Assembly (NCBI GenBank): GCA_028622995.1
Contig: JAJQJQ010000049.1
Span: 930,001 to 994,000, forward strand
DNA length: 64,000 bases
Direction of reading: 5' to 3'
DNA from: Panagrolaimus kolymaensis
Taxonomy: Eukaryota; Nematoda; Chromadorea; Rhabditida; Panagrolaimidae
Both the position numbers and the translations under genes were made by a program. Within the stretch, counting starts at the first letter, position 1, and every line of letters begins with the position of its first letter. The notes beneath the pieces are model-generated. The model was given only the letters and a program-made list of their open reading frames with translations. It made no database searches and was not told the origin of the DNA. Below are positions 20,923 through 63,733 of this stretch, in pieces.

Positions 20923-21403
20923 CCCAGCCTTCGTTGCAAGCGGAATGCACTAACTGCGCAGCGAATTTGCAGCGAACTTTTGCAGTAAATGCGCAGCTTA
21001 TTTTTAAAGCTGCGCAGTTAGTGCAAGAATGCAGCTAATCTAATTAATATTTTAAATTTTAAGAATCCGAGTTAATAGCTTGATTCTTATTATTTTTTTG
21101 TCCCCATAGTCAGGAAAAGTGTAATAATGATAGATTTAGTATCCCTATAGTGAAATCCCTGATTTTCTAGCCAAAATAATTAATTCTAAAAACATAATAA
21201 ATTAGCTGCATTTTTTGCATTTAGTGCGCAGTTAGTGTGCAGATAGTGCGCAGTTAGTGCACTAATGCTGCGTATCCTATTTGCAGCTAATTTTTGCAGT
21301 AAAGGCGCAGCTAAGCAAATTAGCTGCGCACTACCTGCGCCCCGTTAAAAAAATTCGCAGCTAATTTGCAGTTAGTGCGTGTTCGCAGCTATCGAGCCCT
21401 GGG
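20923..21403. mobile_element. Small non-autonomous element with CCCAG ends
   Basis: 481 bp with short inverted ends (CCCAGC../..CCTGGG) and a TT direct repeat on each side, so the presumed 2-bp target duplication is TT (AA on the coding strand). Inside are many scrambled copies of TGCGCAGTTAGTGC / GCAGCTAATTTGCAG on both strands, making the element highly self-complementary. It has no coding capacity. It interrupts the Helitron helicase, and its removal with one TT restores the frame and an expected helicase sequence. The superfamily is not assigned. Confidence 0.75.
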
Positions 21404-24400: not shown

Positions 24401-24677
24401 TGTCTAACGCATTAACAGTTTTAAGTTTACGACCTTCTTTATCATAAATTGTTACATATGAGTCGGGGATTTCGCCATCATCCGTGGTAGCAAAAACAGC
24501 AGCAACTTCATTAGATGTTTGCAAATTAAAGCGACGGGGATCGACACCTTTTTTTAAGCCAAAATGCAATGATAAATTTAATGGTGGTGTATTATTTTGT
24601 AATGCTAAGTTTTGATGTATATTATATTGTTCATGTAACATTTGGAAAGCTTGAGCGTGACAGTTTATTTTGCTTAA

Positions 24678-27336
24678 AGGAACATAGCTATTTCTTGCCT
24701 TTCTTGAAATTTCACTTCCCGTAAAGTGAAAGATGAAAAAATCGATACTGGGGCAGGGCGGCAAATTCAAAAAAAGCGTTTTCGCTTTGAAATCATCGTT
24801 TCCTTTCTTTCTTTAATTTTTTTCATTTTGATTTTTTTGTTGACGATGTTTGTCCTAATATTGGTTGATGATTTGATTGTTTTGATGAAAATGGTTGCTG
24901 CTTCTTCATCTTCATGTCACAGGGGAGTTATTTTTATTCTTTTTGTCATATCTTTAGTTCTGTTTTTAGATACTTCGTTCGATGGCTGCTTCGTCGTCAT
25001 TTATCCCAGGCCAGTTTTTTCGTATTGTTTGATTTTTTCTTTAGTTCATTTTTTAGGTAATTTTGACGATCTATGGCTTTTGGATGATGATTGAATGGAT
25101 AATATTATGTAATTTCGTTTATGCCCAAATGAGCTCGATGCTTTATGAAACTTTTGATACAATTCAATGGTTAGTGATTATGGTTTTTTGCTATCGACAA
25201 TGGTGTAATTGTTGAGGGTTTGCCTGGGTTATTATATTAGTACATTAGCGTGATACATGTATAATTGTTGATTCAAAAGCTATAATGGAGTTGACTCAAA
25301 AACTGTAATGCTTTAATGCAAATTATTCTTGTCACAATTGTCTTTCCCTGATACTATCAAGTGGAACATCGTCGAAAAGGAGACATGTTTCACTTACAAC
25401 AAACTTTAGCACAATAAATATTTTTATGTTCAAAGGAAATAATAAACCACATTGCGATATCTGATTTTTACTCATATTCTTGGAAAGCTTTCATCTTCAT
25501 CGAAATAACATTCATTGTATCCTTTATACTCACTTGCGGATGATGGATAAAATTTTCTAACATGTGCAACAAAACAAGCTGGTAGTTGAAGCTTTTCACC
25601 TATTGTTTGATGGACATTGTTACTTTACGATAATCCATATTTTGCTGATTCTTCAGCATAACCGTATTATCACTGAACATATTTCGAGTAAGCTATGTGA
25701 CTTGTTTCAACTTTATTTGTTCAAGCAAAATAAAGGCATCAAGTTCCATACGGCTTTGATTTATTTGTTCAATGATGTCTTGATTTGCAAAGCATCTGAC
25801 TAAATTACTAATAAATCGTTGTCAATTAGTTGCCCATTTCGTTATACTTTCTCCAATACAGCAAAAAGAAACCATTTCCTCTATGGTTGTTAGCATTGGT
25901 AAACAACTGTCACACATATACCCCAATCATAGGACTTACGACTTTCGCTAAATTCATAACCAAGAAGATTACAATAATAAGAAGTTGGAGAAATTGTTGG
26001 TATGTTTGTTTCGTTTTCGGAAAATAAGCAAATGGCTTGATTGAATTTTCATTTACGTGTAAGAGTTTTTGAATAAGCAATAGAATGAAAGATGGAAATG
26101 AATATTATTTTCATTATGCAGATTATTGCTGGATAGGTAAATACATGTTGTAATTAATTATTATCAAAGGCCAGAGTCAACTACCTTTCTCGAAAATTCA
26201 TATTTCCGTTATTGCTTTGCTTGCCCCTTTCTTCATAGACAAAATAAAAGAATGAATATTTTTCTTTGTTCACTGATTGAAAGGTAAGAAGCTAGAAGAA
26301 TTACAGCCACATTTGATCCTCTTCCTACACCTTCTCCTGAATATGACGGTGGCAAACACTATTATCTTGTTAATGGTTCTTCTCAACATATTACATATTA
26401 CTGTAAAAAAAGAATGCCATAGCGCAAAAACAAAGATATATCAATGTGGACTAAGAAACGAGCCTTTGGAATCCTCCCTTTGTTGTTGAACTCCAAGAAA
26501 ATGAAGAACTTGTCGAAGATTTGATTGAATATGTAGGGATTGCCAAAAAATGCTTTTATCTTTTTTCAACCATTGCTATGAGTGCAAACCGGAACTAAGG
26601 GAAAAAGGAATTGAGTAAGATTGACCCCGATGGAAGCATTCCGCTTCGATGTCCATACTGGTGTCCTCAAAGTCACAAAAGACATGGGCACCACAAGAAG
26701 AATTCTTATAGCTAAAATTTATCAAGCAATTGCACTTTTGGCATTTACAACTTCGGTATTACATGTCGGGAAAAAAGTTACGAATATTTGAGCTTCTGAG
26801 GCACCGCAACGTTCACATAATCTCTTGTCGATGGCATAAAAATAATCATAAACCCTGAAAGGTTGCATAAATACATAATCGACATCATTTGAGAAAAGCA
26901 AAAACATCAATGATATGCGGCTTCCATCATCCAAAAGCCATAGATCGTCAAAATTACCTAAAAAATGAACTAAAGAAAAAATCAAACAATACGAAAAAAC
27001 TGGCCTGGGATAAATGACGACGAAGCAGCCATCGAACGAAGTATCTAAAAACAGAACTAAAGATATGACAAAAAGAATAAAAATAACTCCCCTGTGACAT
27101 GAAGATGAAGAAGCAGCAACCATTTTCATCAAAACAATCAAATCATCAACCAATATTAGGACAAACATCGTCAACAAAAAAATCAAAATGAAAAAAATTA
27201 AAGAAAGAAAGGAAACGATGATTTCAAAGCGAAAACGCTTTTTTTGAATTTGCCGCCCTGCCCCAGTATCGATTTTTTCATCTTTCACTTTACGGGAAGT
27301 GAAATTTCAAGAAAGGCAAGAAATAGCTATGTTCCT
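24678..27336. mobile_element. 2.7 kb TTAA transposon with ~415-bp inverted repeats (copy 1)
   Basis: Bounded by TTAA at 24674-24677 and 27337-27340. Ends read AGGAACATAGCTATTTCTTG inward, and the inverted repeats extend about 415 bp (to near 25092 and 26940), so nearly the same hydrophobic ORF appears on both ends; this is repeat sequence rather than a gene. The centre (25.1-26.9 kb) holds decayed coding-like fragments, for example EYDGGKHYYLVNGSSQH near 26340 and, on the minus strand, EYKGYNECYFDEDESFPRI near 25500, all broken by stops. No transposase is recognised. TTAA target duplication suggests piggyBac, although the termini do not begin with the usual CCC. It is inserted in the Helitron RepHel gene. 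Confidence 0.88.
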
Positions 27337-28214
27337 TTAAAGTTTCAGATAAAATTTTTGTAATTTCTGGTTTCAAATTCGAAAATGCTGCTTGCCTTGT
27401 TTCAGCTGCTTCGAGGGGATCAACGATATATAATTGACCGTATGATTTAAGAGTATTAGCTTCATTTTGCATAGTTGTATTTATTTGATAATAAACTTGT
27501 CCTTGAACAACAAAAGAATATGGTCCTGGTCGGTTTATACCAAAATTAACAGTATCAGCGTTAAAAGAAGCGAATGCATGTATGTTATTGTAAAGTCTAA
27601 TATTTTTTTGAAATTCTTGAATATCGAAAAGTTTTTTTATTTCATCTGGAAATGTTGGTTGGGTTGGAAATTTTATAGACCCATGTTGACAGCAACTGCT
27701 AAATGATGATCCTTTATTGCTAACCTTTTCGTTTTCAAAATGGTTTGCGCTACAATGCTCACAGTTAATGTTCATAGGACCGAGAAAATGTGGAGTTGTT
27801 GTATCAATAATATCTTTTCCACCTGCACAAATTAAGTTTGTTGGACGTCTCATGGATCGCATTCCAGATTTTGCATTTTGTGAATTAACTAACCTTTCTT
27901 CTTGAGTTAAATTTTGTCTCAACAATTGCATCCTTGCTCTTTTTTCAGCATTTTCAACTTCAATTTCTTCATCATTCATATTTGCTCTTGATACCCTTTT
28001 TCTTGTATTTTCATGACTTGTTCCCTTCTTTTGCTTTTTATTTAAACGTTGCGTTCTATCCCGTTCTTGCTTTCTTGCTTTTAAAACTTCTTTATGCCTG
28101 GCTTCTTCAGAAGGCGTACGTTGAATTTTAGGTGGCATTTTTGATAAATTTAAAATAGTTATATGTTAAAATTATTGATTATATAAGTATGAAAATGTTA
28201 TATGAAGTCTGAAG

Positions 28215-44900: not shown

Positions 44901-45246
44901 TGGAATTTACTCAAAAAAATTGAAAGCACAGATATGAATTCACTAATAAATTAAATTACATTAATTTTTAAGCTTGTAAAAATCAGAAAAATAATCTGGA
45001 GTCAAATAATTTTTTTGACAAATGTTCACGAAACGCGAAGATTACCACTCCTGAAATATAAACAGTTTTTAACCTAAAATTTAAATATTAAACTTTTATT
45101 TATGCCTATTTTTTTATTTGGGTTTTCAGATAAAAACAACTTGAAACATAAAATAAAAAACCTATTTTCTTCAAAGTTTTATGATTTGATGCGTATATTT
45201 TTTATTTTTTCCATTTAACTTTCACTTGTTTGCAGTCACTATCTAA
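41970..45246. other. Gene-free AT-rich region
   Basis: About 3.3 kb with poly-A/T, TCTTCT/CTGCTG-like triplets and short GAAAGA runs. ORFs up to 140 residues are Leu/Ser/Phe runs from these repeats, often open on both strands, and are not supported as genes. Confidence 0.55.
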
Positions 45247-46130
45247 TAAAAAAATATATATGAATTTCTTGATTTTCATGAATGACATTTTTTTATTGTT
45301 AAAGCAAATTCTGTTTTGATCTCTTAAAAGTTACTTACAGCAACTTCAAAAAAGAAAAAACCGACTTTCAGCTTCCTCTAAAACTATTGCATCCTCAAAC
45401 AAAACAAAAAACGCTAAAGATTGAAAAAAATTAGGCATAAAAAAAGCTATAAACTTTTTTTTACTTTGGAAGATGACAACCAACCACCACCTTCAGGAAT
45501 TTAAATTTTAATATTTTTTTTTGCATTTTTAAAAAACTTCAAAAAGAAATTTACCGAAAAAATTGGCCATCATCAAAATTTTAAGAAAATTTGCGGCGGT
45601 GATACTTTTGAAGTTAAAATAAATTTAATTTCCACGCCTTTTTTACTTCTTCTTTTATTTTTTTAAATATTGAATCATAAATCATAAAATAGAAATTGAT
45701 GATCAACCTTTTTTCTTTCAATGACAAAAGGATAATTTTTTCAATTTATATTTTTTTCCATTTTTTTGACAGAATCAAATCAAAAGAAAAAAGAGTGGAG
45801 ACAACTGAGCAATAGTTTAGTTTTGTTGATTATGCATGCTTTTTTTCCACCATTTCCATTTCCATTTTTTTCGTTTGTCCATTCAACCAACAATATTCGT
45901 TTCTTTTTTCTCCACAATATTGCAAGGTCCTGTGTTCTCTTTTCTATGCAGTTCTCTTCTTTTTTTTTTGTGCACAGGAGAAAGTTCACATTTACACAAA
46001 CACGTATGTATGTGTTTGATTGGTTTTTTTTTGCAATTTTTATTGATAACAAAAATTTTATTTTATTTCGTTACTTTATTTATTTATTCTTTAAGTTTTG
46101 GATTCTTACAAAATCTTAATTGATTGACTT

Positions 46131-46520
46131 TAGGGTTGGTTAATTTACCGGTGAAATAAAAATCGGTTAATTAACCAGTGAATTAACCGGTTAATTAACC
46201 GGTGTCGATGTTAATTAACCGCTACTACGAAAGCCTACAAAAATTTACGAAATGTTACGAAATGAGTGTTTTATAGAGCAAACACCATTATTTGACGAAA
46301 AATGATGGATTTTAGAGAAATTTAACGATAAAATGGGAGAAATAAACACTTTAACGTGGTTACCCATGTCTCTTTTTTTTGGAAAATGGTAGCAAAGGGT
46401 TTTCCCTGTGGTAAAACTTTTTTTAATTTACCGGTAAATTATGCCTCCGGTTAATAACCGGTTAATTAACTGGTTAATTAACCGGTGAATCTACCGGTTA
46501 ATTAACATTTGCCAACCCTA
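46131..46520. mobile_element. hAT-type MITE made of GGTTAATTAACC repeats
   Basis: 390 bp with ends TAGGGTTGG / CCAACCCTA. ATTGACTT flanks both sides (offset by one extra A on the right). The matching stretch of the other repeat copy (about 60738) has a single TTGACTTT and no insert, which is an empty site. The interior is dominated by CCGGTTAATTAACCGG palindromes. No ORF. Confidence 0.85.
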
Positions 46521-46587
46521 AATTGACTTTGAGAATTTTAGTAATAATTAATTAGTTTTAGAAATTGTTTTTTTTGTGAGTTACAAG

Positions 46588-46747
46588 CAGTGTTCTTCCT
46601 TTCCCAAAAAGTCGCCCCTGCACCGCACCGCGCCCCTGGAATTTTCGAAACTTCGCCCCTGCCCCGCCCCGCGCCCCGGGGCGGGGCGGGGCGGGGCGGG
46701 GCGGGGCAGGGGCGTGCGTGCGAAAATGGGGGCGAGGAAGAACACTG
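46588..46747. mobile_element. GC-rich hAT-type MITE with G-quadruplex tract
   Basis: 160 bp with ends CAGTGTTCTTCC / GGAAGAACACTG and a perfect 8-bp target duplication GTTACAAG (46580-46587, 46748-46755). The other repeat copy has the single GTTACAAG empty site near 60797. The middle contains six consecutive GGGGC units plus further G runs on the plus strand, able to form a G-quadruplex. It lies about 170 bp before the ATG of the first GTPase gene. Pro/Arg-rich ORFs through it are composition artefacts. Confidence 0.93.
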
Positions 46748-46917
46748 GTTACAAGTCTTTTTAAAAAATGAGGCAATTTTCCATTCGCGAAAAATCATAT
46801 GAAATATATTTTTTTTGAGACATTAAAAATGATGAGATTTTATTCGCTGTTTCATAATCGATGCATTTTAATTTTTGTTCCTGAACTTTTCATTTTTAAA
46901 TTCCTTTTTAGACAGGA

Positions 46918-48698
46918 ATGACTTCTGAATTTAATCTTCTTGTCTTGGGTCAATCGGGTACAGGAAAATCAACATGGATAAATTCATTTGCAAATTATTT
47001 AACTTATGAAACATTGGATGATGCTTTAAATTCCAACAAACCGATTTGTCTGGTTCCCTCAAAATTCAGTTTATCGGATGACCATTACCGCCAAATTTTT
47101 GTATCAATTGGAACACCTGATGCAAACGAAATAGCCTCTCCTGGAGCTTCATGCACTAAAACACCAAAAGTTTATTCTTTTCATCGCAATGGTCAAAAGA
47201 TAAATGTTATTGATGTTCCTGGTATTGCTGATACTGCAGGAACTGAAAAAGATGAAGAAAATACAGCTTTAATTCTTGATACCGTTGCATTGTTTAAAGA
47301 ACTTCATGCTATTTGCATTGTTATTAAATCGACTGAAAGCAGAATGTCTGTGGAGTTTAGATATAGTTTAAGCGAACTTTTAATGCATCTTCACAAAAAT
47401 GCATTGGACAATGTCGTTTTTGTTTTTACGAATACTCGTGGGGCTGATTACAAACCTGGATTGGCACAAACACCTTTGGTTGCTTATTTAGATGAATTAA
47501 AAAAATATAAAAAAATTAAAATCAATCTAAATCGTAATGTTAGTTTCTTTGTGGAGCGAATATATTAGAATAACAGAAATGAATTAATTTATAAATATTT
47601 TAGATAATGTACTGCATAGATAATGAAGCATTTCGCTTTCAATGTGCATATGCTCAACATCGACAATTCCGTGATATGAGTACCACAACATTTGCTAAAA
47701 GTTGGGATGAAAGTCGTAAGGCCACATTCCGTTTAATTAACCATATGAAGCAATTACGTCCACACGACGTTAAGGATACATTATCCATTAACGAAGCACG
47801 AGCTGTCATTTTAATGTTAATACAACCTCTAACAGCTATCACCGCTTTAATTCAACAAAATGCAGCAAATTATGAAGATAATTATGATGAAATTGTTGAT
47901 CAGCTGCAACAAAACCTTGCTATTTCTAATTTTGATATACAAATTGAAGAGCTTGAACGTCCTCGAACCGTGTGTACAGAAAAAAAGTGTATTACAGTTG
48001 AAAAACTTTCTGGAACTTCACGCTATATAACACATTACAAGCAAATTTGTCATGCGACATGCTATTTGGATAATATACCTTTAAAACGCTGCCCAGAACC
48101 TGGCCTTAGAAGTTGTGCAGCAATGAGGAGTAGTGAAAATTGTTATCAATGTGGTTGTCATTATACAAAGCATATGCACATCGATTATAATCAACGCATT
48201 CTTCTAAAAGAAACTACTATGGGCCAAACATTGAATAAGTTAAGTAAAGCAGCGGCTGTGGATAAACTTGACCAAACGCTCAAAGATCTTAAAAATGAAC
48301 AAAAGACAGTTACCGAGATAATGGTTAAATTTGCTGGATTTCTTTCCGTGAATGCAATTCTCGAATATAATGGTGACATCGATGAACGGTTAAAAATGGA
48401 AATTCGTAAAGAAGAAGCTGCAGCTGACATATCTAAAAATACTACTGCCCTTAATCGTTTGAAAACTGTATATGATGATTACATGAAACAACAAAAAGCT
48501 TTAGAAGCTACTATTAAAACTGCAAATGGAGTATGCGAAATAACCACAGAAGGAGTTGTTGATCTTCGTAATGCTCTTTTTAAGCTTCCTCTTCATGGTG
48601 GAAAAATTGAAGAACTCTACAGTAAGGGGCGAAATAATAATCTTGACAATTATTCCGGAAAAAATTTTATATCAGTCGCTGCTAATCATATGCCCTAA
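46918..48698 (+). CDS. Cluster GTPase A: P-loop G domain plus Cys/His-rich C-terminus
   Basis: Two exons, 46918-47538 and 47604-48698, give 571 residues. The P-loop is GQSGTGKST (11-19), switch II is DVPGIAD (99-105), and a TNTRG block (171-175) sits where the base-specificity motif is expected. The next segment (..YCIDNEAFRFQCA) is conserved in gene C. This combination matches a poorly characterised family of AIG1/septin-like large GTPases of invertebrates and fungi, not Ras or dynamin. The C-terminal half has a Cys/His-rich stretch from C331 to about 400 (CTEKKC, CHATC, CYQCGCHYTKHMH) that could bind metal, then a predicted coiled coil. A TTTTTAG acceptor lies about 7 nt before the ATG. An AATAAA overlaps the stop. 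The cellular role is unknown; such families are often defence- or stress-linked, but that is inference. Confidence 0.8.
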
Positions 48699-48853
48699 TA
48701 AAATGATGCCAAGATTAATACTTTCATATATTTTGTACTCATTATTTATAAGTTTTGTTATATAAAGTTAATTTAATTGAATTTCGATAATGAGAGGATG
48801 TAATGTTTTTAAACATTTGATTACTTTGTTGTTTTTTGTTGTGAATTTTAAAC

Positions 48854-51800
48854 ATGATTTTAGTTATGAATCCTTCATTTGGACTTGAGCCAATACCTGG
48901 CGAGTTATATCAATCTAAAAATCTCCAAAAATCTGGGTTTATTGATCTCGAAACCGAAACTTCACCATTATTTAATACCTATACTTCGGAAAGAATTATA
49001 AACCCAACAAATCTATTATCTGATATATGTGATCTTATGGAATGCGATGCATGGTTTTTGGTAATTTTTGCTTCTTCAAAACAAGAATGCGAGGGATTTT
49101 TGTATTTTCAGACAAAAGTAGTAGTAACTTTTGAACAAGCTTTAAAAGCAGCGTTGGATGTTTTGTGTTTTGAAGAAAACCCATTTCCATGTATAGTGGT
49201 GGATGTCATTAAAAGGGTAAAATCAATTAAAAATATTAAGTAAATATATATATAAATGTTTAGAAGATTGAAACATGTTATACTATAAATAGTGCTCAAA
49301 ATTCTCCTGGTAATTTAATGGTACGAGCTATAGAAATTGGACATTCCTTCGCTTTTATTTTGGGTTCAAAAGTTCCTATTAGAGATTTAAAAGGAGCCAC
49401 GCAAGTATGCTTTTAATGTTTCATTTATAATTATGTAAGCTATTTTAATTTTAAGAAATTTGCTGATATTGTACAGTCTTCTCAACCTTGCCATATTTCA
49501 AAATTCACTTGGTTTGATAGTGAAAATATTTACATAAGTGTTTTAAAAAACTGGTGTGATGTGGTTTGTGATAAAGTTAATGCTGCAAAAGCTATAGAAA
49601 CGATGTATGAAATTCAAAAAAACGAACCGTCAAGAGTAATAAAATTTGAATGGGACGATTTCAAGCATACTTTGCCCAAACATAGTTTCGCAGTTGATTC
49701 TAAATTTCAAAAATGCTACATACTGTTAAATGACATCATAAAAATGTCGAGGGAATTTGAAAAACTTATTGGCGTTTTACAAAATGAAAACGTGAATTCA
49801 ACGACGCTTAACGTTAAAAAAGCATTGGAGGGGCTTAACAAAGATTTAAAAACCCAGTCATATTTTATTACTTATGATAATATTCAAGATGTACTTTCAT
49901 TTGTTATGCCTACTATAAGTTCAAGCAAAGAAGACTTAAAACGTTGGGAAGCTAACAAGACGCAGCTGGATTTTCAAACTTATAAACTTTTGTTTGACTA
50001 TTTAAGTTTAATTATGAATCAATTTCAAAAAGGCAAATGCGTTATTAGAAATAGTATCTTATTTTATCAAAGCGAAAGTTCGGATGATGTAAAAAAGCTT
50101 TTCAAAAATAACGACGTCATCATAATAAACTCTTTTGATGAAACGTTTAAAAAATGGTTGAATCAGAAGTTTCTCAAAGATTATCCTATTTGTGTATTAA
50201 ATACTCATGATTTTGGTCCAGAACCTGTTTTATTTTATGAAAGTGGCGTTATTTATGGCTTTGGTTTTCTTATTTTAAACCAAAATTATCCAAGTGGTTG
50301 CAACAATTTAAAACCTACAGCTTTTAAATGTATTGATAAAAATCATGGCTTCTTAAGATATTGGAAGTGCACAACTTGCTTTACCTTTGTAAAATTTGAT
50401 GGAAAGTATATATTTTGCAAATGTGGTATTAACTCCTTTAACAATGCCCTAATGAAATGCGGAGCTTCAGCTAATGTGAAGTGTGAACCAGAAAAGCTTC
50501 ATAAAAATGGAAATGAAATTGATTCTTTCAAAAAAGTAGAAACCACGACAGGTTTGTTAATAATTCTTTTTTTCTTCACAAAAATAACTCAAAATTAATA
50601 AAAAATAATCTGAAGTGTATAAAATTTTATTTCCCATCTAGGTCACTTTTTATTCATTAGTTAAAAAAAAAACACATTATAAAATTTTTTTCACGCATCA
50701 ACATTAGTGTTCGATTACCGACCCGCCCGACCGAAATGTCGGTATTCGGTGATTTTTTAGGTATAAAAAATTGAGTCGGTAGGTAAATCGGTAATTACCG
50801 AAAATAAATAATTCGGATCGCTAAATCGGTAATTCATAAAAAAAATTTCCTTAATATAATTTAACTAATACTTTAAAATTAATGTAATATAGCTAATTTA
50901 CAAGTGCAATAGCCTAAAAACATTCAAAATTACTTTACAAAATACTTATAACTCATAGAAATGGACAAGTTTATATCATAAATTTTCACAATTTTTTGAA
51001 TTTTTTCGAGTCGGTATAAAAATTACTTCAGGTCGGTATTTCGGTAATTACCGACTTTCGGGTCGGTAATCGAACACTACTTGTGAGTAATATTTTTTGC
51101 AAACATTTTTTAGAGAAAAGTATTTATCTGTTTAAAAGCCCGAAATATTTAAATTTATTATAGAGATCTTTAATGGCTGTAGAAAGTGTTAACTGATAAA
51201 AGTTAATTTAATTATTGATTATAGACGCAAAAATAAACAACACTTATACTATTGTTTTATTTGGTCTTTCACAAAGTGGCAAATCAACTTTGATTAATTC
51301 AATCTTTAATTACCTTGAATATGAAACATTGCAAAGTGCTTCATCTCATGCACTTATGGCTCCAATCCCTTTTAACTACAATATTATTGACGAGAACTTT
51401 AAAGAACATACGGTGAAAAGTCAACAACTGCCAGAAAATAATAATGAAAATTTTTCAACAAATTTTTCAACAACCCTTAAACCCCATATTTATAAGCGAT
51501 GTTGTGATGGTATAACATATCGATTTGTTGATACGCCAGGTTATAACTCAGAAATAAGTGGAGAAACACAAAGCGAAATTACTAAGATGTGGGAAAGCTT
51601 GCATAAAATTGAATCTGTTTGGATTATAATATCAGCTGCTCAAAATATTCAAAAGTACGATTCATTAATGACGCAAATATTAAAATTAGTGCCAAAGATT
51701 ATGTTTTCTCGGGTATTTTTTATTTTCACAAACATTCAAAGTAAAGAGGATTTTTATATGAATGCTAACATTGCAACTTTAACAAATGACTTTAAACAAT

Positions 51801-52264
51801 TTGACTCATTTAAAAAGGAAAATATATTTTTTATGGAAAATAATTGCATAAGATATTTATATGCACAAAAACTTTTTCGCTTCCAATTACCTTCCACACA
51901 TTATGAGAATATGTGGAAAAATTCTCAACAGGCAGCTTTAGAATTACTTGACAAAACGAAATCAATTTATCCTGAAATGAAAAAAGCGATGTTTTTAATC
52001 GATTTAAAACATTTATATTATTATTTAAGAAGAAACAAAGTATGCAATCATTTAACACCATCGTATCAACTTCTTATCAATTCATTTATATTTATTCCTT
52101 TAGAAATATGTATTACTGACAATAATAATATTCCAACTTATGATGAAGTAATAAAATCGCTACGAAAGTTAAAAGAGAATCTCGCCTATGAAAATACCGA
52201 AGCTTACAAGTTGTTGTGTGATTTTCTTGAAAATTATGATAGCAAGTATGTTGAACGTTTGTAG
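48854..52264 (+). CDS. Cluster GTPase B: N-terminal novel region, Cys cluster, C-terminal G domain
   Basis: Exons 48854-49216, 49264-49404, 49456-50551 and 51225-52264 sum to 880 codons, so the protein is 879 residues. The N-terminal region (1-470) has no clear match. A hydrophobic strand-like stretch (MVRAIEIGHSFAFILGSKV, about 140-158) is shared in pattern with gene C. A helical part follows, then WKCTTC (471-476) and CKCG (489-492), resembling a zinc ribbon. The G domain starts near 535 with P-loop GLSQSGKST (547-555) and DTPG at 636. Gene A lies only 155 bp upstream, which would fit a nematode operon. The last intron carries a hAT-like MITE. Fusion to the G domain depends on the junction at 50551/51225, which preserves frame and is repeated in gene C, so I trust it. 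Function unknown. Confidence 0.72.
50705..51079. mobile_element. hAT-like MITE in an intron of gene B
   Basis: 375 bp with 20-bp inverted ends TAGTGTTCGATTACCGACCC and many CGGTAATTACCGA palindromes inside. TAGTG fits the hAT end rule, but no 8-bp target duplication is visible, so it is older or belongs to another family. It lies within the 673-bp intron of GTPase gene B. Confidence 0.75.
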
Positions 52265-52923
52265 AGGCTTTTTATGCTCCCGTGAATACATGTATACCAA
52301 GAGCTAAAGGAATAAATTTACCTTGTTTCAAATCTTTGTTTAAAGTTTAAAGTGTTCTACGAACTTCCAAAAATTTATCTTGTATTTTTAAGGCTATGTC
52401 TCTTGGTTTTTAATAGAGATGGGTTGGCGAAATGACCCGGGGACGCCAAAAAATGTCATCAAAACTTTTTGAATTACGATATTTCCCGTAAAAAAAATCT
52501 AAAACTACCATATTGTAGAGCTCATCGAGTGACATAACAAGGCAGTTTTAAATTTAATTTACAGAAAAAAACGTAATTCAAAAAGTTTTGATGACATTTT
52601 TTTGGCGTCCCCGGGTCATTTCGCCAACCCATCTCTAGTTTTTAATGTATTATTAATGCAATACAATTATTATTTTTATAATTATACTCAAGACATTTTT
52701 TTAGGAAAGAGAAGGCTGGATTTTTTGGCATCGTAGGTGAAAAAATAGGACAACTATTGATTAAAAATTTTATTTCTGAATGATTATTATTTTTTGGTGT
52801 TTTCTATTTTAAAGTTTTTAAAAATAAATACAGTTTCTTAAAGTTTGGCTATTGTTTTAAAAAGTTAAAATTGACTAATGTATTTTTATTTATTGTATTT
52901 TTTAAAAATTCCAATTTCTTTAG
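52265..52923. other. Spacer between GTPase genes B and C
   Basis: About 660 bp, of which 224 bp are the MITE at 52414-52637. The remainder is AT-rich. A TTTTTTTAG-preceded stretch near 52705-52740 could be a non-coding exon of gene C. A TTTCTTTAG acceptor directly abuts the gene C ATG. Confidence 0.5.
52414..52637. mobile_element. hAT-type MITE with long inverted repeats
   Basis: 224 bp with about 65-bp inverted repeats (starting TAGAGATGGGTTGGCGAAAT) around a short centre, so it could fold into one long hairpin. Perfect 8-bp target duplication GTTTTTAA at 52406-52413 and 52638-52645. No ORF. Confidence 0.93.
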
Positions 52924-55855
52924 ATGATATTGCAACTCCCAAGTTTTTTATTTGAAAACAAAGATTTTAATTTGGGACAAGAAATAGAAATATCATCGTT
53001 GAAGTTTTTAAGAAAAAAACCTATTTTTAATCTGCCAACCTTTGATATCAAGCGCTGCAAAAATGATTTTAAATTTTTTTTAGATATTGTTAGGCCCCAA
53101 AGTCGTTTTACAGACTTATCAAAGATTTTGAATGTACCTCAAAATTATCTTGCAAGTTTTTGATTTTTGTCAAGTTAATTAATGTTTTATTTTTATTTTA
53201 GTTTCAAGCTCATGTTAAAGAAAAGAAACATTGGTTAATAAGTCGTTTCATACAAGAGCCAGCGATATTTTTGTATTTTTTTCGACCAAAATCTGTTAGT
53301 TTTTATTATATTTTAACATGCATTTTTAAACATTATAGGCAAATATTATCATTCCGCCTAACGCTTTAACCGATATTTATATTACCGAAATAAATTACGG
53401 AACTTCTTATTTTGCTATAATTAAAGGGTTTGGCGATAATATAAATGAAGAACTCAAAAAGGTTTGTTTATTAATTTAAAAAGAAGAAGAAGCATTTTTA
53501 AATAATATTTCTTTAATAGGTGGGACACTTAAAATATGTAGGATAAAATTAGTAATTAGAGTGACAAAAATTGCTCAATATATTTTAGATAGCTATTTAC
53601 TAAAAGAAATATTTGAAGATGAAAACAGATTTGAAAACCGCCTTTGAGTTTTTGATTACTTACAAGTTTAATATTTTAGGACATTGAAGAAGCAATAAAA
53701 AGCAAGTCGCCAATCAGTCAAAAACAAATTGATTGCTTATGCTATATTATTTCACCGGATGATAAAGAAACTCATGTAAACTTTAAACAGCTTTTGACAT
53801 ATTTACATTCTGGCCCTGAAAAGGAATTATCTTCAACGGCCATCAATGTAAAAATAAATTTTGAAAAAAATGTAAAGGATGATAATAACTATGATAATTT
53901 TTTTCATAATGTTGACGCATGCCGAAATCTTGCAAGCAAATTTAGAAATAGTGCTGAATTCACTGAATCCAAAGTTTTTTTCAAAGGAGTTACCATTGGT
54001 ATGATAAAGACTTTAAATGATGAGATTGAAGCTTCCTACAAATATCCCAATGAAAAATATTCTTTGGCTTATAGATATTTTCAAATTATTGAAGGCTATA
54101 TTTATGATAATGAAAAGCTTGACGTTTTATTAAAAATTATTCCAGTTTTGGTAAAATTGTTAACAACATGCTTCGAAAGCACTAAGAAATTTAGCAAAAT
54201 TGATGGACATTGGTATTTATTTTGCGATGAATCGCTTCTTTTTAAAAGCGCGCCTGGAACCTTATTTTATATTAAAAATGGAAGCCCATCTATTTTAATT
54301 AATCAATGTGACGAAAAAGAATGGATATTTGCAGCAATGAATATTAAAAAACTAGAAGAAAAAGATCTTTTTTACATTTCAGACGGAAGCAACCAATTAA
54401 AAAGTTATGGTTTCCTAGATCTTCCACGTGGTGATTATTCAACATCAGCTCGTTCATTAAGTTCACAATTATTTATTTCTAAATGTCCATGTGGTAAAGC
54501 AAAATTTGAAAACTTTTGGATTTGTCCACTATGTAAAAGCTTTTTCTTTTATCATTTAAAACGAGCAAAATTTATATCATGTAAATGTGCTAGCTATGAA
54601 ATTAGCAAAATGTATGGTATATCATCTCAAACTGAATGTAAAACACATGAATACCTATTATTAACCAATAATTCTTTTAAAAAACCAGGTATGTATGACA
54701 TTTTTGATAGCAAAAAAATCAAAAAGCTTCAAGCTTTTTTTAGATTCGTTAAATAATGTTTATAATGTTTTGATCATGGGGCCAAGTGGCACTGGAAAAT
54801 CAACTTTAGTTAATGGAATTGCAAACTATCTTCATTTTGAAACATTACAACAAGCAGAAAAAAATAACAGAGTTTCATGTATAATTCCATGCAAATTTGA
54901 AGTTCAAGATGATGATTATAAAAATCATACTGTTGCTCTTGGACAACCAAATGAAAATGAAAATTTTAACTCCCATGGATATGCGGTTACTCAACGACCC
55001 CGCGACTATTATTTTGATTTAACTGATCATGAAATAATTCATATAATTGATACGCCTGGCCTTGCAGATGCTCGTGGTGTTGCTCAAGATGATATTAACA
55101 TGGAATTAATAAAGGATGCGGTAGCTGAAGCTGGGTATCTTCATGCTTTATGCTTTGTTCTGAAGCCAAATGAATCAAAGCTTTCAGTTGGTTTTGAAAC
55201 AACTATGCGTCGATTACTATCCCTTTTTCCAAAAGAAGCTGTAGCTAACGTAGTTTTTTGTTTTACTAATTCAAAAGCAACCCTTTATCGTCCAGGTGAT
55301 TCAATTGAACCCATTAATGCTCTTATTAAAAATTTAAAAGAAGAATCAGGAGTTAATCTCCCATTTGGACGTCAAAATGTTTTTTGTATGGATAATGAAG
55401 GATTTCGATTTTTATGCGCCCGATTTTGCAAAGTTGATTACACTTCATCCACCTTTGAAGAATATGAGGATAGCTGGAAAAAATCTCGCGCTGCAACATT
55501 TGCTTTTATTGATCATCTTAAAAGAATAAAACCATTTGAAACACAAAAAACAAATTTTTATGATGATCTTAATGAAATTACAAAAAAATGGGCAGAAGGA
55601 ATTGAAGGAAGAACTATGTCTTACAATGAGAATCAACGTTTTAATATTATTACAACAGTTCTCCTCAAAAATTTAACAGGAAAAAACGCTGAATATATCA
55701 AAAGAATTACTGAACAAAATGGTCAAAAATATTATCAACACGTTCCTTCTTCTCAGGATGACCTTATGGACACCATACATCAAGTATTTGTTGAAACAAA
55801 AAATCATAGCTTAGCATATAGCATTCGAACATTTCTCGATCGTCATCGTTTTTAA
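52924..55855 (+). CDS. Cluster GTPase C: same architecture as gene B
   Basis: Exons 52924-53133, 53202-53294, 53339-53461, 53680-54688 and 54744-55855 give 848 residues. The start MILQLPSF parallels MILVMNPSF of gene B. Residues 112-131 (ITEINYGTSYFAII..) match the strand-like block of B. Cys motifs CPCG (411-414), WICPLC (422-427) and CKC (443-445) form a zinc-ribbon-like cluster. The G domain follows with P-loop GPSGTGKST (491-499), DTPGLAD (581-587), TNSKA and CMDNEGFRF. It ends without the Cys/His-rich tail of gene A. The region 53510-53660 holds another open stretch (frame GTLKICRIKLVIRV..) that cannot be joined without a frameshift; I read it as a decayed or skipped exon and splice 53461 to 53680. 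B and C are tandem paralogues; gene A is a more distant relative. Confidence 0.72.
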
Positions 55856-57120
55856 TATTTATGCTTACTTATAAAATTACTTTTTTACATTTATGAGAAT
55901 TAATAAATATTTTATCTTTAGAAATTTGTCGCAAATTCAAAAAAGGAAGTTTTCTTGTTTGTGACTCACTCTTGTTATTTATTTTTTTTACTTTATATTG
56001 ACTCATTTATGATCTTTTTTGCTTATTTACGCATGTGAATATTTTCCATTTTTTTCTGGGAAACTGCCTTTTATATTTTATGAGTATGCCCCATCTTTCA
56101 CTGAATTAAAAAAAGTATAAAGCACAAAAAATTTGAAAATATCATCCAGCATTTCGTAATAAAGATTGACCATAAATATTTTTGATTTTTTTTTTTTGCC
56201 ATAGTCAGTATAAATATGCTTTCCAATGATGGCCATCTCATTTCTTTTTTCTGAGTTTGACTGGGAATTAGTAATCTACGCTTACTTATGCTAACAACCT
56301 GAAAATCTTTTCAGCTCATGCAATTGAAAAATACGTATGTTTCGCTTTTAAACATTTTTTACTTCTTTTTTATTTTTTATCAATAATTTCTTCGAAGCTA
56401 CCTTTAAATTTATTTTGATGTTCATTGACCTCTGTTTTTTTCCTTGTCTCTTAGAATTTTAGCTTTTGACAGCAATTTTTTTCCGTTTTTTAGTGATAAA
56501 ATTTTACAACCATTTTTTTTAATATAATAACTCAAGAAAGAAATGGTCATGATGATGATGGACATTTACAACTCTTCTATTTCTTTTTTTTGTTAGGTTG
56601 TACAGACTTGTGCCAAACTGCAAAAAAGAAAAAAAAAACACTTGTGACTCATTTTTTCTCCATTTTTTGATGAAATATTTTTTTGTCTGTGCTTCTTTTA
56701 AATTTTGCTTGCTTCAAATAAATTTTTTTAAAAATAAAATTCATATTCATAAATTGTTTATGTTTCATTTTTTGGAGATTGGACCGAGGATTGTATAAAC
56801 GTTTAAACGTTTATTGCTGAATTTTTTTATTTTTCAGCGTTTTTATGTTATTGCTTCTTTTTTTTTGTTGCAAAAAATAGAAAGTTGATTTTTTTATTTT
56901 GTTTTAACAAATAAAATTTTCTAAAAGCTTGCATTCCTTTTTAATCCACGTGATTATTTTTTTGGGCTTTGCTACACATTCTTATTTTTTTGTTGTTAAT
57001 CATTGTCATGAAAATTTTGTGAATCAAACATCTGCTAAAAAAACTATCGCTAAAACTAGCAAGAATTAAAAAAATTTCTTATATTTTTTTATCGTTTTGA
57101 GCGTTATTTTATTTTTGGAG
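55856..57120. other. AT-rich region after the GTPase cluster
   Basis: About 1.26 kb of T-rich sequence with no credible ORF. Short homopolymer ORFs only. Confidence 0.5.
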
Positions 57121-60100
57121 CAATAAAAAAATATAAATTTCGTGATTTTTCATGAATGACATTTTTATTTTATTTTAAAGGAATTTCTGTTTTGATCTCT
57201 TAAAAGTTACCTACCGCAACTTCAAAAAAGAAAAAACCGACTTTCAACTTCCTCGAAAACTTTCACATTTTAAAAAAAGGCTTAAAGGAACATAGCTATT
57301 TCTTGCCTTTCTTGAAATTTCATGTCCCGTAAAGTGAAAGATGAAAAAATTGATACTGGGGCTGCGCGCGAAATTTGAAAACGTTTTTCGTTTCAAAATA
57401 ATCGTTTGCTTTCTTTCTTTGATTTTTTTCATTTTGATTTTTTTTGTTGACGATGTTTGATCTAAATGTTGCTGTTTGTCCTAATATTGGTTGATGATTT
57501 GATTGTTTTGATGAAAATGGTATATGCTGCTTCATCTTCATGTTACAGGGAAGTTATTTTTATTGTTTTTGTCATATCTTTAGTTCTGTTTTTAGATACT
57601 TCGTTCGATGGCTGCTTCGTCGTCGTTTATTCCAGGCCAGTTTTTTCGTATTGTTTGGTTTTTTCTTTAGTTCATTTTTTAGGTAATTTGGACGATCTAT
57701 GGGCTGTGGTGGATGATGGTAGCTGCCTGTCATTGATGTTTTTGCTTTTCATCAATCGATGTCGATAAAGCATATTGATTTCATTTGCAGTTTAGTTATT
57801 ATAGTTTGATATCGACATTTCGATTATGGTTAGAGCTGCATGGAAGAATAGCATATAATCGTGCTTTTCCAAATAATGTTAATTATGTATTTATGAAATC
57901 TTTCAAGGTTTATGATTATTTTTATGCCATCCACAAGAGAGTATGTGAATGTTGAGGTCCCTCAGAAGCTCAAATATTCGTAACTTTTTTACCGACTTGT
58001 ATTACTGAAGCTGTAAAGGCTAATAGTGCAATTGCTTGATAAATTTTAGCTATAAAAATTCTTTCTTGTGGCGCCCATTTTTTTTCTGACTTTGAGGACA
58101 TCGAAGCGGAATTCTTTCATCGGTGCTAATCTTACTCAATTCCTTTTTTCTTTAGTTCCGGTTTGCACTCATAGCATAGCAATGGTTGAAAATAGATAAA
58201 AGCAGTTTTTTGGCAATCACTACATATTCAACCAAGTCTTCATTTTTTTGGAGAACAACAACAAATGGATGATTCCAAAGGCTCGTTTCTTAGTCCACAT
58301 TGATATATCTTTGTTTTTGCGCTATGGCATTCTTTTTTTTACAGTAATATGTTGAGGAGAACCATTAACAAGATAATACTGTTTGCCACAGTCATATTCA
58401 GTAGAATGCGTAGGAAGAGGATCAAATATGGCTGTAATTCTTCTAGCTTCTTGCCTTTCAATCAATGAACAAAGGAAAAAATTCATTCTTTTATTTTATC
58501 AATTATGAAGAAAAAGGCAAGCAAAGCAATAACGGAAATATGAATTTTCGGGAAAGGTCGTTGACCTTGGCCTTTGATAATAATTAATTAGAATATGTAT
58601 TTACCTATCCAACAATAATCTGCAAATGAAAATAATATTTATTTCCCTCTTTCTTTCTATTGATTATTCAAAAACTCTTACGTAAATGACAATTCAATCA
58701 AGCCATTTGCTTATTTTCAGAAAATGAAACAAACATACCAACAATTTCTCCAACTTCTTATTATTATAATCTTCCTGGTTATGAATTTAGCGTAAGTCGT
58801 AAGTCCTATGAATGGGCTATATGTTTGACAGTTGTTTACCAATGCTAACAACCATAGAGGAAATGGTTTGTTTTTGCTGTATTGGAGAAAGTATAACGAA
58901 ATGGGCAACTTATTGACAACGATTTATTGGTAATAAAGTTAGATGCTTTGCAAATCAAGACATCATTGAACAAATAATCCAAAGCCGTATGGAACTTGAT
59001 GCCTTTATTTTGCTTGAACAAATAAGGTTGAAACAAGTCACATAGCTTGCTCGAAATATTTTCACTGATAATACGGTTATGCTGAAGAATCAGTAAAATA
59101 TGAATTATCGTAAAGTAACAATGTCCACAAACAATAGGTGAAAGGCTTCAACTACCAGCTTGTTTTGTTGCACATGTTAGAAAATTTTATCCATCATCCG
59201 CAGGTGAGTATAAAGGATACAATGAATGTTATTTCGATGAAGATGAAAGCTTTCCAAGAATATGAGTAAAAATCAGATATCGCAATGTTGTTTATTATTT
59301 CCTTTGAACAAATAAATATTTAGTGTGCAAAAGTTTGTTGTAAGTGAAACATGTCTCCTTTTCGACGATGGTCCACTTGATAGTATCAGGGAAAGACAAC
59401 TGTGACAAGAATAAATTGCATTAAAGCATTAAAGCCATAGCTATTTAGTGACACATAAGTGAATTCGTAGTTGATTGAATTTAATCTTATTCAAATATAA
59501 ATGTCCTTCAAATGATTAGCAACGGAATAGGATGACGTTGATGATGAAAAGCAAAAACATCAATGACAGGCAGCTACCATCATCCACCACAGCCCATAGA
59601 TCGTCCAAATTACCTAAAAAATGAACTAAAGAAAAAACCAAACAATACGAAAAAACTGGCCTGGAATAAACGACGACGAAGCAGCCATCGAACGAAGTAT
59701 CTAAAAACAGAACTAAAGATATGACAAAAACAATAAAAATAACTTCCCTGTAACATGAAGATGAAGCAGCATATACCATTTTCATCAAAACAATCAAATC
59801 ATCAACCAATATTAGGACAAACAGCAACATTTAGATCAAACATCGTCAACAAAAAAAATCAAAATGAAAAAAATCAAAGAAAGAAAGCAAACGATTATTT
59901 TGAAACGAAAAACGTTTTCAAATTTCGCGCGCAGCCCCAGTATCAATTTTTTCATCTTTCACTTTACGGGACATGAAATTTCAAGAAAGGCAAGAAATAG
60001 CTATGTTCCTTTAAGATTGAAAAAATTTGGCACTAAAAAAGCTATAAACTTTTTCTATTTTGGAAGATGACAACCAACCACCACCTTCAGGAATATAAAT

Positions 60101-60884
60101 TTTAATATTTTTATGCATTTTAAAAAACTTCAAAAAGAAATTTACCGAAAAAATTGGCCATCATCAAAGTTTTAAAAAAATTTCAAAGTAGTTAAAAGTA
60201 AATTTGAGGCGGTGATACTTTTGAAGTTAAAAAAATTTAATTTTCACGCCCTTTTTTCTTCTATTTTTTTTTTTAAATATTGAATCATAAAGCATAAAAT
60301 GGAAAATGATGATCAACCTATTTTTTTTTTCAATGACAAAAGGATAATTTTTTCCATTTATATTTTTTTTGACAGAATCAAATCAAAAAAAAGAGTGGAT
60401 ACAACTGAGCAATAGTTTAGTTTTGTTGATTATGCATGCTTTTTTTCCACCATTTCCATTTCCATTTTTTTCGTTTGTCCATTCAACCAAAAATGTTCGT
60501 TTCTTTTTTTCTCCACAAAAAAAATATTTGCAAGGTCCTGTGCTCTCTTTTCTATGCAGTTCTGTTTTTTTTTTGTGCACAGGAGAAAGTTCAAATTTAC
60601 ACAAACACGTATGTATGTGTTTGATTGCTATTTTTTTTTGCAATTTTTATTGATAACAAAAATTTTACTTTATTTTGTTACTTTTTTTTAAAATTTATTT
60701 ATTCTTTAGGTTTTTGATTCTTACAAAATATTAATTCCTTGACTTTGGGAATTTTAATAATAACTAATTAGTTTTAGAAATTGTTTTTTTTTGTGAGTTA
60801 CAAGTCTTTTTAAAAAATGAGGCAATTTTTCATTCGCGAAAAATCATATGAAATATATTTTTTGAGACATTAAAAATGATGAGT
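57121..60884 (+). repeat. ~1.0 kb repeat, copy 2 (right of the GTPase cluster), split by a TTAA element
   Basis: Direct copy of 45247-46833. It lacks both MITEs of copy 1, giving empty sites, but is split at its own TTAA by the 2725-bp element at 57286-60010. In copy 1 the corresponding site reads CTAAAG with no insert. The flanks diverge right after ..AAAATGATGAG in both copies. Confidence 0.85.
57286..60010. mobile_element. 2.7 kb TTAA transposon (copy 2, reversed interior)
   Basis: Flanked by TTAA (57282-57285, 60011-60014) with the same AGGAACATAGCTATTTCTTG ends as copy 1 and inverted repeats of about 460 bp. The interior matches copy 1 in the opposite orientation, so the two are independent insertions of one family. 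The inner fragments are again broken by stops, so both copies look non-autonomous. The two copies differ in parts of the inverted repeat, including the GC-rich block next to the shared ends (GCGCGC versus GGGCGGC). Confidence 0.9.
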
Positions 60885-61924: not shown

Positions 61925-63733
61925 ATGGCTGGTTACGGAGAAATTGCATCGTAAGTGTTTTTTGTTTTTTGTTTGCCCTCGACCTCACAAACTTTAACTT
62001 TTATTGCTTTTCATCAATCATCACCCTTCCTTTCCTTGTGCTTGATAAATGATGCACTTTTCCTCCGCAGAAATAAAACTAAAAACACATAAAAAAATTT
62101 TTATATATATATTTTTTAGACTCATTGATAAGAAAAAGGGAGACTTTATTGAGCGTTTACGTCATGCGGTTGAAATCCCAAGTGTTTCAGCTGATGCTGC
62201 ATTCCGTAAAGATGTGTTTCGAATGGTTGAATGGACTAAAAAGGTTTTTGTTTTATATATTCCATAGTTTCTAAACCCTTTATTTTTTTGCTATAGCTAC
62301 TTGAAACCCTTGGAACTAAATGTGAATTAATTGAAAATGGAAAACAAACACTTCCAAATGGTGAAGAAATTGATTTGCCTCCGGTGCTTTTTGGAACCCT
62401 TGGAAATGATAAATCGAAAAAGACTTTACTCGTTTATGGACATTTGGATGTTCAACCCGCGGATATTTCAGATGGATGGAATACTGATCCATTTAAACTC
62501 ATTGAAATTGATGGAAAACTTTATGGCCGTGGATCCACGGATGATAAAGGCCCCGTGATGGGTTGGATAAATGCCATCGAAGTTATGCAAGAACTTAAAG
62601 TGGATATTCCAATCAACATTAAATTTGTTTTGGAAGGCATGGAAGAATCAGGTTCAGAAGGATTGGATGAAATTTTATTGAAGCATAAAGATTCATTCCT
62701 TTTCGATGTGGATTTTACTTGCATTTCTGATAATTATTGGCTTGGCAAAACTAAACCATGCATCACTTATGGATTAAGGTAAACCTTTAATTAGCTTTAA
62801 GCTTATCTCTAACTTTTTCGTTTTTAGAGGCATTTGTTATTATTGCGTCGAAGTCACTGTTTGTAAACAAGATTTACATTCTGGAGTTTTTGGTGGCACT
62901 GTGTAAGCATTTTTAAAATCTAAGCTCTTCTATAGATATATTCCTTCTTCTTTTTTATAGCCACGATGGAATGTCAGATCTTTGCTGGCTTCTTTCCCAA
63001 CTTACTGAAGTTGATGGAACCATTAAAATTAATGGCATCAGTGAAATGGTTGCTCCAGTAACTGATGAAGAACGAGAACTTTATGAAAAAATTGATTTCG
63101 ATCTTGATGGATATCGAGATGATATAAAAGTTGAAAAACTTCTCACAGATGATAAAATTAAAATTTTAATGAATCGTTGGCGCTTCCCATCCCTCTCAGT
63201 TCATGGCATTGAAGGAGCATTCTCAGGCCCTGGAGCTAAAACGGTTATTCCATCAAAAATTGTTGGAAAGTTCAGCATTCGAACTGTTCCAAATATGGAT
63301 CCTGAAGCCGTAGATAAATGTGTTACAGATTATTTGAATAAAATGTGGTCTCAACGTAAATCGCCAAACAAGTTTAAGTAAGCAACATTTTTTTAAAGCA
63401 TAATTCGTTTACTAAAAAATTTCCTTTTTTTCTAGGCTCACTCCTCTTCAAGGTTCCAAAGCTTGGGTTGCTGATTATAAACACCCACACTACCAAGCTG
63501 GAGCAGCAGCCATTAAGACTGTATTCGGTGTTGAACCCGATTATACTCGTGAAGGTGGAAGTATCCCTGTCACTTTGACTTTCCAAGAATTAACCCAAAA
63601 GAATGTCATGCTTCTTCCAATGGGAGCTTGCGACGATATGGCTCATTCACAAAATGAAAAACTCAATGTTAAAAATTATATTGATGGAACTAAAATGCTA
63701 GCTGCATATTTGATGGAATTGGGCAAATTATAA
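61925..63733 (+). CDS. CNDP2: Cytosolic non-specific dipeptidase (CNDP2 type, M20 family)
   Basis: Six exons (61925-61950, 62120-62243, 62297-62778, 62828-62902, 62961-63377, 63436-63733) give 473 residues, close to human CNDP2 (475). The enzyme hydrolyses Cys-Gly and other dipeptides with two metal ions in the cytosol and functions in glutathione turnover; C. elegans has related peptidases. Metal ligands are visible and land on the human residue numbers: H99 (YGHLDVQP), D132 ([10 protein letters not shown]), E166 and E167 ([10 protein letters not shown], catalytic base and ligand), D195 (ISDNYW) and H445 ([10 protein letters not shown]). H228 (DLHSGVFGG) lies in the dimer region. Each junction keeps frame, with GT..AG introns of 49-169 bp. 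The short first exon codes MAGYGEIAS. The gene looks fully functional. Confidence 0.97.

What the first reader, a model, noticed from the sequence alone, without database searches (positions are those of the whole stretch)
46918..55855. Tandem cluster of three unusual GTPases, two fused to a novel zinc-ribbon-containing N-terminal region
Genes B and C share an architecture I cannot place: about 470-490 residues with a strand-like block, a Cys cluster (WxCxxC..CKC) and then a complete P-loop G domain. The G domain belongs to a poorly studied AIG1/septin-like family. Gene A has the G domain first and a Cys/His-rich tail. The two layouts sit next to each other, 155 bp and about 660 bp apart, suggesting an operon or a recently expanded locus. 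An N-terminal region fused to a large GTPase is reminiscent of immune or membrane-remodelling GTPases. That role is inference.
Basis: partly seen in the sequence, partly recalled or inferred. Interest (0 to 1): 0.75.

Follow-up and report, generated by a model that had tools for sequence, protein, structure and literature searches.

The report
Split, hemizygous SNTX-type nematode GTPase cluster
Three neighbouring genes of a triploid nematode encode GTPases that look like complementary parts of one larger protein, and the cluster was found on only one of the animal's three chromosome sets, as is seen in some fast-changing defence genes.

Summary
A (571 aa), B (879 or 875 aa) and C (854 aa) are open, spliceable genes at the stated place. 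The genome fits the published Panagrolaimus kolymaensis assembly (inferred from size, contig count, triploidy). A and C pass Pfam's AIG1 cut-off; B passes only MMR_HSR1. AIG1 expansion in a related nematode is published, so the G domains are not new. New here: (1) A matches the G domain plus Cys/His-rich tail of a fungal protein whose front half is MACPF_SNTX-DUF7656-zinc ribbon; B and C have a front region, a like-placed zinc ribbon and a G domain, but no such tail. The same genome holds an undivided gene with all these parts. (2) The front of C follows the exon layout of that gene's MACPF_SNTX region, but every direct sequence test failed, so SNTX descent is probable, not shown. (3) In the assembly the A-B-C block is absent at both homeologous sites; a second A-C pair on another contig is missing from the one homeologous site read. 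Best reading: a dispensable, fast-evolving GTPase cassette, probably of intracellular defence; the function is inference. New variant of a known kind.

The parts
46918..48698 (+). Gene A: G domain (about residues 1-265), then Cys/His-rich and helical C-terminal part; exons 46918-47538, 47604-48698
   Evidence: AIG1 44.2 bits, cut-off 27; 171 of 575 aligned columns identical to the C-terminal half of fungal P0004
48854..52264 (+). Gene B: front region, zinc ribbon, diverged G domain; exons 48854-49216, 49264-49404, 49456-50551, 51225-52264; start may be 48866
   Evidence: MMR_HSR1 33 bits, AIG1 15.8 below cut-off; global hhalign to the C-type profile Prob 95
52924..55855 (+). Gene C: front region (residues 1-416), zinc ribbon, G domain; exons 52924-53151, 53202-53294, 53339-53461, 53680-54688, 54744-55855
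   Evidence: Panagrolaimus homologues; AIG1 45.6 bits
54484..54588 (+). Zinc-ribbon-like Cys cluster of C (CxC..WxCxxC..CxC)
   Evidence: sequence; C-type profile aligned with fungal P0005 here
50329..50424 (+). Zinc-ribbon-like Cys cluster of B
   Evidence: sequence; hhalign to the C-type profile
45245..55960 (.). Block present on contig C48 and absent at the homeologous sites on C41 and C50; right end approximate
45245..46836 (+). Left part of the block: diverged duplicate of 57122-57261 and 60013-60883 (four pieces, 87-97% identical), with two MITE-like inserts
52414..52637 (.). MITE-like element with 40-nt perfect inverted ends between B and C
50705..51079 (.). MITE-like inverted-end element inside the last intron of B; ends by eye
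   Evidence: sequence

Best explanation
A, B and C belong to a group of large GTPases, seen here in nematodes and fungi, whose undivided form is MACPF_SNTX - helical - DUF7656 - zinc ribbon - G domain - Cys/His-rich tail. Here that plan occurs as complementary parts in tandem: A is G domain plus tail, B and C are a diverged front module plus zinc ribbon and G domain. Most likely they act inside the cell: GTP binding switches the G domain and its helical tail between states (oligomer or membrane association, as recalled for septins and GIMAPs), while the front module, which changes fastest, recognises a partner or carries the output. The block is dispensable: in the assembly one of three pseudohaplotypes has it. 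That fits a defence gene kept by changing biotic pressure. Shown: gene structures on paper, homology of A to the rear half and of the zinc ribbon-G unit, the undivided gene, presence/absence in the assembly. Probable: the front module of B and C derives from the SNTX-type region. Inferred: GTP switching, oligomerisation, membrane action, defence role, co-function of A with B/C.
For: P0005 carries MACPF_SNTX, DUF7656 and a GTPase domain over cut-off; P0004 the same with MACPF_SNTX under cut-off; A aligns along the C-terminal half of P0004. Undivided gene on contig C2: MACPF_SNTX E 2.7e-20, DUF7656 8e-17, MMR_HSR1 26.8 bits, and a C-terminal part that aligns with P0004 as A's does. Exon lengths in the front: undivided gene 76/38/61 aa then one long exon, C 76/31/41, C' 72/31/35, the introns between them phase 0; B keeps two of the three by alignment. 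Second A-C pair on C8. Empty sites on C41 and C50 and, for the C8 pair, on C30. NG86 dN/dS about 0.19 for A/A', 0.36 for the G part and 0.62 for the front of C/C', each with dS above 1. G-domain tree: A with A' in a clade with other tail-bearing genes, the undivided gene and P0004; C with C' and P0001-P0003. AIG1 genes are over-represented among dispensable lancelet genes (PMC12373286, passages).
Against: The fronts of B, C and C' show no match to MACPF_SNTX, Stonustoxin_helical or DUF7656, nor significantly to the undivided gene or P0005 by HMMER, hhalign or exon-wise alignment. None of 7 other GTPase frames of this genome scanned listed those models at E up to 1 (two of the seven tables show the best 25 families or fewer). 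The undivided gene and P0004 themselves score under the AIG1 cut-off (21.1 and 23.6 bits, cut-off 27). No usable model of the front. No expression data. In H. mephisto AIG1 transcripts were not heat-induced, and the passages read name no test of an immune role (PMC6872716). B's G domain lacks the conserved block after G3 seen in A and C.
Confidence: 0.55

Rival explanations
1. The front region of B, C and P0001-P0003 is a nematode-specific domain unrelated to SNTX proteins, joined to a zinc ribbon-GTPase unit by exon shuffling; the similar exon layout is coincidence.
For: All direct sequence tests were negative; searches with B's front and with a C-type profile found nothing outside Panagrolaimus.
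Against: Three phase-0 introns with similar exon sizes in C, C' and the undivided gene; same order of motif exon, helical part, alpha/beta part and zinc ribbon; helical bundle predicted at the expected place.
Confidence: 0.3
2. Decaying leftovers: the block is a set of dying duplicates on one chromosome set.
For: Absent at two homeologous sites; B strongly diverged, best partner 31%; MITE-like elements in and around the genes.
Against: Frames open and splice sites present in all three; dN below dS for A/A' and C/C', though dS is near saturation; A-C linkage and exon plan kept at a second locus.
Confidence: 0.1
3. A selfish toxin-antidote-like or incompatibility pair, with A and the C-type gene as the two parts, kept by its own drive before parthenogenesis.
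For: Two linked, diverged, complementary genes at two unlinked places, each hemizygous as far as read.
Against: No killing activity known to me for the family; the lineage is parthenogenetic; three genes, not two, at C48; purely by analogy.
Confidence: 0.05

Closest known systems
AIG1-like GTPases of panagrolaimid nematodes (Halicephalobus mephisto expansion, PMC6872716)
   Same: AIG1-type G domain, large expanded family, apart from vertebrate GIMAPs, related to fungal proteins (passages)
   Different: In the 12 of 21 passages shown to me the front module, the zinc ribbon, the split of parts and presence/absence are not described
MACPF_SNTX-DUF7656-GTPase proteins of fungal type (P0004, Trichoderma asperellum; P0005, unnamed)
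   Same: Zinc ribbon directly before a like G domain; A matches the C-terminal half of P0004
   Different: All parts in one protein; front domains recognised by Pfam. In B and C the front is not recognised and the tail is missing
Stonustoxin-type fish proteins (MACPF/CDC, FAT, thioredoxin, PRYSPRY; PMC6114736, passages)
   Same: Possibly the front module order: MACPF-like, helical bundle, alpha/beta domain
   Different: Venom proteins ending in PRYSPRY; a GTPase is not named in the passages read; the fronts of B and C fail the family models
GIMAP/IAN GTPases and septins
   Same: AIG1 Pfam model (A, C); weak septin similarity in PDB searches
   Different: No front module of this kind known to me (recalled; lancelet ones can carry CARD); PDB matches mostly cover only the P-loop region

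Membership tests
AIG1 family (PF04548) | A and C score over Pfam's curated cut-off of 27 bits | tested here: met
   A 44.2, C 45.6 bits
AIG1 family (PF04548) | Same, for gene B | tested here: not met
   15.8 bits, cut-off 27; MMR_HSR1 33.0, cut-off 21.9
AIG1 family (PF04548) | GTP binding and switching | not testable with these tools
   P-loop and DxPG seen in sequence only
SNTX-type MACPF proteins (PF24674) | Front of B or C matches the family model | tested here: not met
   No match at E up to 10; HMMER and hhalign against the undivided gene and P0005 not significant
SNTX-type MACPF proteins (PF24674) | MACPF/CDC fold | tested here: inconclusive
   Models too poor in that region; C residues 1-148 were not in the second model
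SNTX-type helical and DUF7656 domains (PF21109, PF24676) | Match of B or C to these models | tested here: not met
   No match at E up to 10. The undivided gene matches DUF7656 at 8e-17 and the helical model only at 0.079, below cut-off
SNTX-type helical domain | Four-helix bundle after the MACPF part | tested here: inconclusive
Undivided MACPF_SNTX-DUF7656-zinc ribbon-GTPase-tail proteins | Zinc ribbon just before the G domain | tested here: met
   C-type profile against the P0005 front: E 8.7e-5, Prob 60, over 46 columns, the ribbon
Undivided MACPF_SNTX-DUF7656-zinc ribbon-GTPase-tail proteins | All parts in one chain | tested here: not met
   A lacks the front, B and C lack the tail
Nematode SL2-type operon | Downstream genes trans-spliced to a special leader | not testable with these tools
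   155-bp A-B gap and acceptor-like TTTTAG/TTTAG before the ATGs only

The most novel reading that the evidence does not exclude
A linked A-type plus front-fused C-type GTPase is a two-part cassette, carved out of one SNTX-GTPase, in which one protein senses and the other executes (as in paired plant immune receptors, an analogy from memory). It sits hemizygously at two unlinked places in a triploid parthenogen, so the cassette is gained and lost as a unit.
Probability: 0.15. Interest if true: 0.75.

Novelty: new variant of a known kind. Interest (0 to 1): 0.5.

Why it matters
It would give the orphan AIG1 expansion of panagrolaimid nematodes an architecture: MACPF-type front modules tied to GTPases, in undivided and divided form in one genome. 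Presence/absence between homeologous chromosomes of one animal offers a natural comparison, and a way to test whether invertebrate AIG1-type GTPases are defence genes.

Tried and rejected
Direct SNTX tests of the fronts failed, so B and C are not filed as SNTX members. HMMER with a 5-sequence profile (C, C', P0001-P0003): 5 targets, among them P0005 and B's front, scored -4.6 to -0.4 bits, below the 95% point of their own shuffles (210 to 388 of 400 shuffles were reported per target). hhalign: only the zinc ribbon, nothing for the pre-ribbon part. Exon-wise alignment of C, C' and P0001 to the undivided gene against 2000 shuffles: lowest P 0.134 per exon, 0.09 summed.

The protein search with B's residues 1-545 found nothing at E up to 1; profile A2 found only P0001 and P0002 and not even its own row P0003. 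PDB searches: A and the five-row alignment A4 (C and C' fronts, whole P0001-P0003) gave weak, mostly P-loop matches to septins and other P-loop proteins; C's front gave chance-level hits. A pattern search for the ribbon and tail in 30 frames found the ribbon in 2 and the tail in none; tblastn does show tails, so the patterns were too strict.

Considered and dropped: contamination (the block lies inside a 2-Mb contig with homeologous flanks); missing homeologs in the assembly (flanks of C41 and C50 are present on single contigs).

Own-genome searches for MACPF_SNTX, DUF7656, the fronts of B and C and P0001 did not complete, so there is no census of front-fused genes. The AIG1 search (52 places) also rings in 12 of 14 bacterial and archaeal control genomes, so some of the 52 are other GTPases, and three have stops inside. 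The third homeologous site of the C8 pair (contig C2, about 9.42-9.44 Mb) was not read; one search lists no match on C2, but it also missed the undivided gene there, so this is weak.
Full report
WHERE IT COMES FROM. The window is contig C48:930001-994000 of a 265,843,910-base, 807-contig genome. The published Panagrolaimus kolymaensis assembly is triploid, 266 Mb, 856 contigs; a mitochondrial pipeline picked out 49 contigs (PMC10374039, passages). 856 minus 49 is 807, if the 49 were among the 856. I infer this species; no tool named it. Elsewhere in the window Pfam finds ordinary genes and a Helitron.

THE GENES. Domain scores: A AIG1 44.2, C AIG1 45.6 (cut-off 27), B AIG1 15.8 but MMR_HSR1 33.0 (cut-off 21.9). 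A/C share 39% over 268 columns, B/C 28% over 437, A/B 24% over 342. B and C share a phase-1 intron just before the G domain and two phase-0 introns around a short exon. A global profile alignment puts B's front along the C-type front (Prob 95), although a local one reached only 99 columns up to and including the ribbon and HMMER on the pre-ribbon part gave nothing.

RELATIVES. C found 5 proteins at E up to 1 among 7992 scored candidates: three of Panagrolaimus sp. PS1159 (41, 40, 34% identity over 94-100%) and two more, matched over 42% of C (P0004 named Trichoderma asperellum; P0005 unnamed but nearly the same in its last 1100 residues). P0005 carries MACPF_SNTX and DUF7656 before the GTPase; in P0004 MACPF_SNTX is under the cut-off. 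The precomputed lists also give PF26633, which I recall as DUF8206; the local Pfam scan did not report it. A aligns with P0004 from the P-loop almost to its end, 171 of 575 columns identical, the Cys/His-rich stretch included. So A equals the rear half, and B and C resemble the front half plus G domain.

THE UNDIVIDED GENE. A fetched stretch on contig C2 matched P0004 over 723 columns at 32%. It holds one long open frame with DUF7656 at 5.7e-17. With 2 kb more upstream and three further exons, ends chosen by eye, the 1216-residue partial protein has MACPF_SNTX at 2.7e-20, DUF7656 at 8e-17, MMR_HSR1 26.8 bits, AIG1 21.1 (under cut-off) and Stonustoxin_helical 0.079 (under cut-off). Its exons in the MACPF part measure 76, 38 and 61 aa, then one long exon; more exons probably lie upstream. 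C has 76, 31, 41 aa, then a 1009-nt exon; C' on contig C8 has 72, 31, 35 aa, then 1003 nt; the introns between these are phase 0. This is the main support for SNTX descent of the fronts; I did not compute a chance value for it. Against it, no sequence comparison was significant. Short motifs at the same place run ATHVVVGIQWG (undivided), ATHTVGEVDYG (L022), DSFVTRIDYG (P0001), DIYITEINYG (C); this is by eye.

PRESENCE AND ABSENCE. Window flanks match contigs C41 and C50 in order. Window 45245 to about 55960 has no counterpart there, except that 45245-46836 resembles 57122-57261 and 60013-60883, a duplicated flank with two MITE-like inserts. tblastn of six pieces covering A, B and C against 30 kb of C41 and 20 kb of C50 gave no E below 0.008. 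C41 has other sequence of its own near the site. The four pieces of the flank copy are 87-97% identical to their source, much like the homeologs to each other, so the event is probably old. On C8, A' and C' lie about 160 bp apart. The matching place on C30 has about 0.3 kb where C8 has 6.15 kb, and no A, B or C match (E 0.025 at best). Of 34 G-domain pieces from the window and 20 fetched regions, 27 have a partner at 70% or more; A, A', C and C' reach 61-63%, B 31%, and two others 61 and 66%. The 20 regions are only part of the 52 places, so partners of some may be unfetched.

RATES AND TREE. NG86 dN and dS: A/A' 0.335 and 1.735; C/C' front 0.792 and 1.274, G part 0.38 and 1.058; dS is near saturation and a second method failed. 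Identities: A/A' 327 of 568, C/C' front 129 of 454, G part 191 of 363. In a 37-row tree (rows under 200 residues left out) A and A' fall with other tail-bearing genes, the undivided gene and P0004 (19 rows, 100/99); C, C' and P0001-P0003 form a set (96/96); B is on a very long branch and its place is unsure. So A-C linkage is older than the split of the two loci, or arose twice.

STRUCTURE. P0001 with 6 rows: residues 1-490 are reported as a segment under pLDDT 50. C exon 4 with 4 rows: helices at 68-168, then short strands and helices of lower confidence. Fold searches were uninformative.

PRIOR WORK. An AIG1 expansion (84 domains against 0 in C. elegans), not heat-induced, possibly of fungal origin, is published for H. 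mephisto (PMC6872716, passages). AIG1 does not occur in the main texts of the P. kolymaensis paper or the panagrolaimid genomes paper (PMC6889759). AIG1 genes are enriched among dispensable genes of lancelets (PMC12373286, passages). Searches for SNTX or stonustoxin with GTPase (the latter listed 10 of 365) and for AIG1 with nematode listed no paper that by title or abstract start treats this architecture in nematodes; apart from the papers named I saw listings only.

VERDICT. Real, open genes; known kind of G domain; unusual divided architecture and presence/absence in the assembly; SNTX descent of the fronts probable, about 0.65; defence role inferred.

Noticed in passing
window 20559-28165, minus strand: Helitron: PIF1 helicase (E 6.1e-56) and Helitron_like_N (E 4.9e-61); pieces near 24672-25089 and 26890-27357 recur at 57280-57718 and 59542-60028 (87-88%).
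   Followed up: partly
window 62297-63730 and contig C48:997388-998971: M20-type peptidase gene with a nearby second copy at 80%, also on C41 and C50.
   Followed up: no
contig C8:3747267 to about 3766380 (starts in L040): Stretch beside the A'-C' pair whose ends of about 316 bp recur inverted (97%), with near-identical copies on C40 and C51; looks like a large mobile element.
   Followed up: no
L022 (contig C56) 512-3439 and 6936-9326: Other GTPases with long, different front regions and a THxV..xYG-like motif; the first has a like-placed zinc ribbon. Near-identical G domains on C14.
   Followed up: partly
window 46129-46522, 46588-46747, 50705-51079, 52414-52637: Four MITE-like elements of different kinds in or beside the cluster (ends of the first three by eye).
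   Followed up: partly
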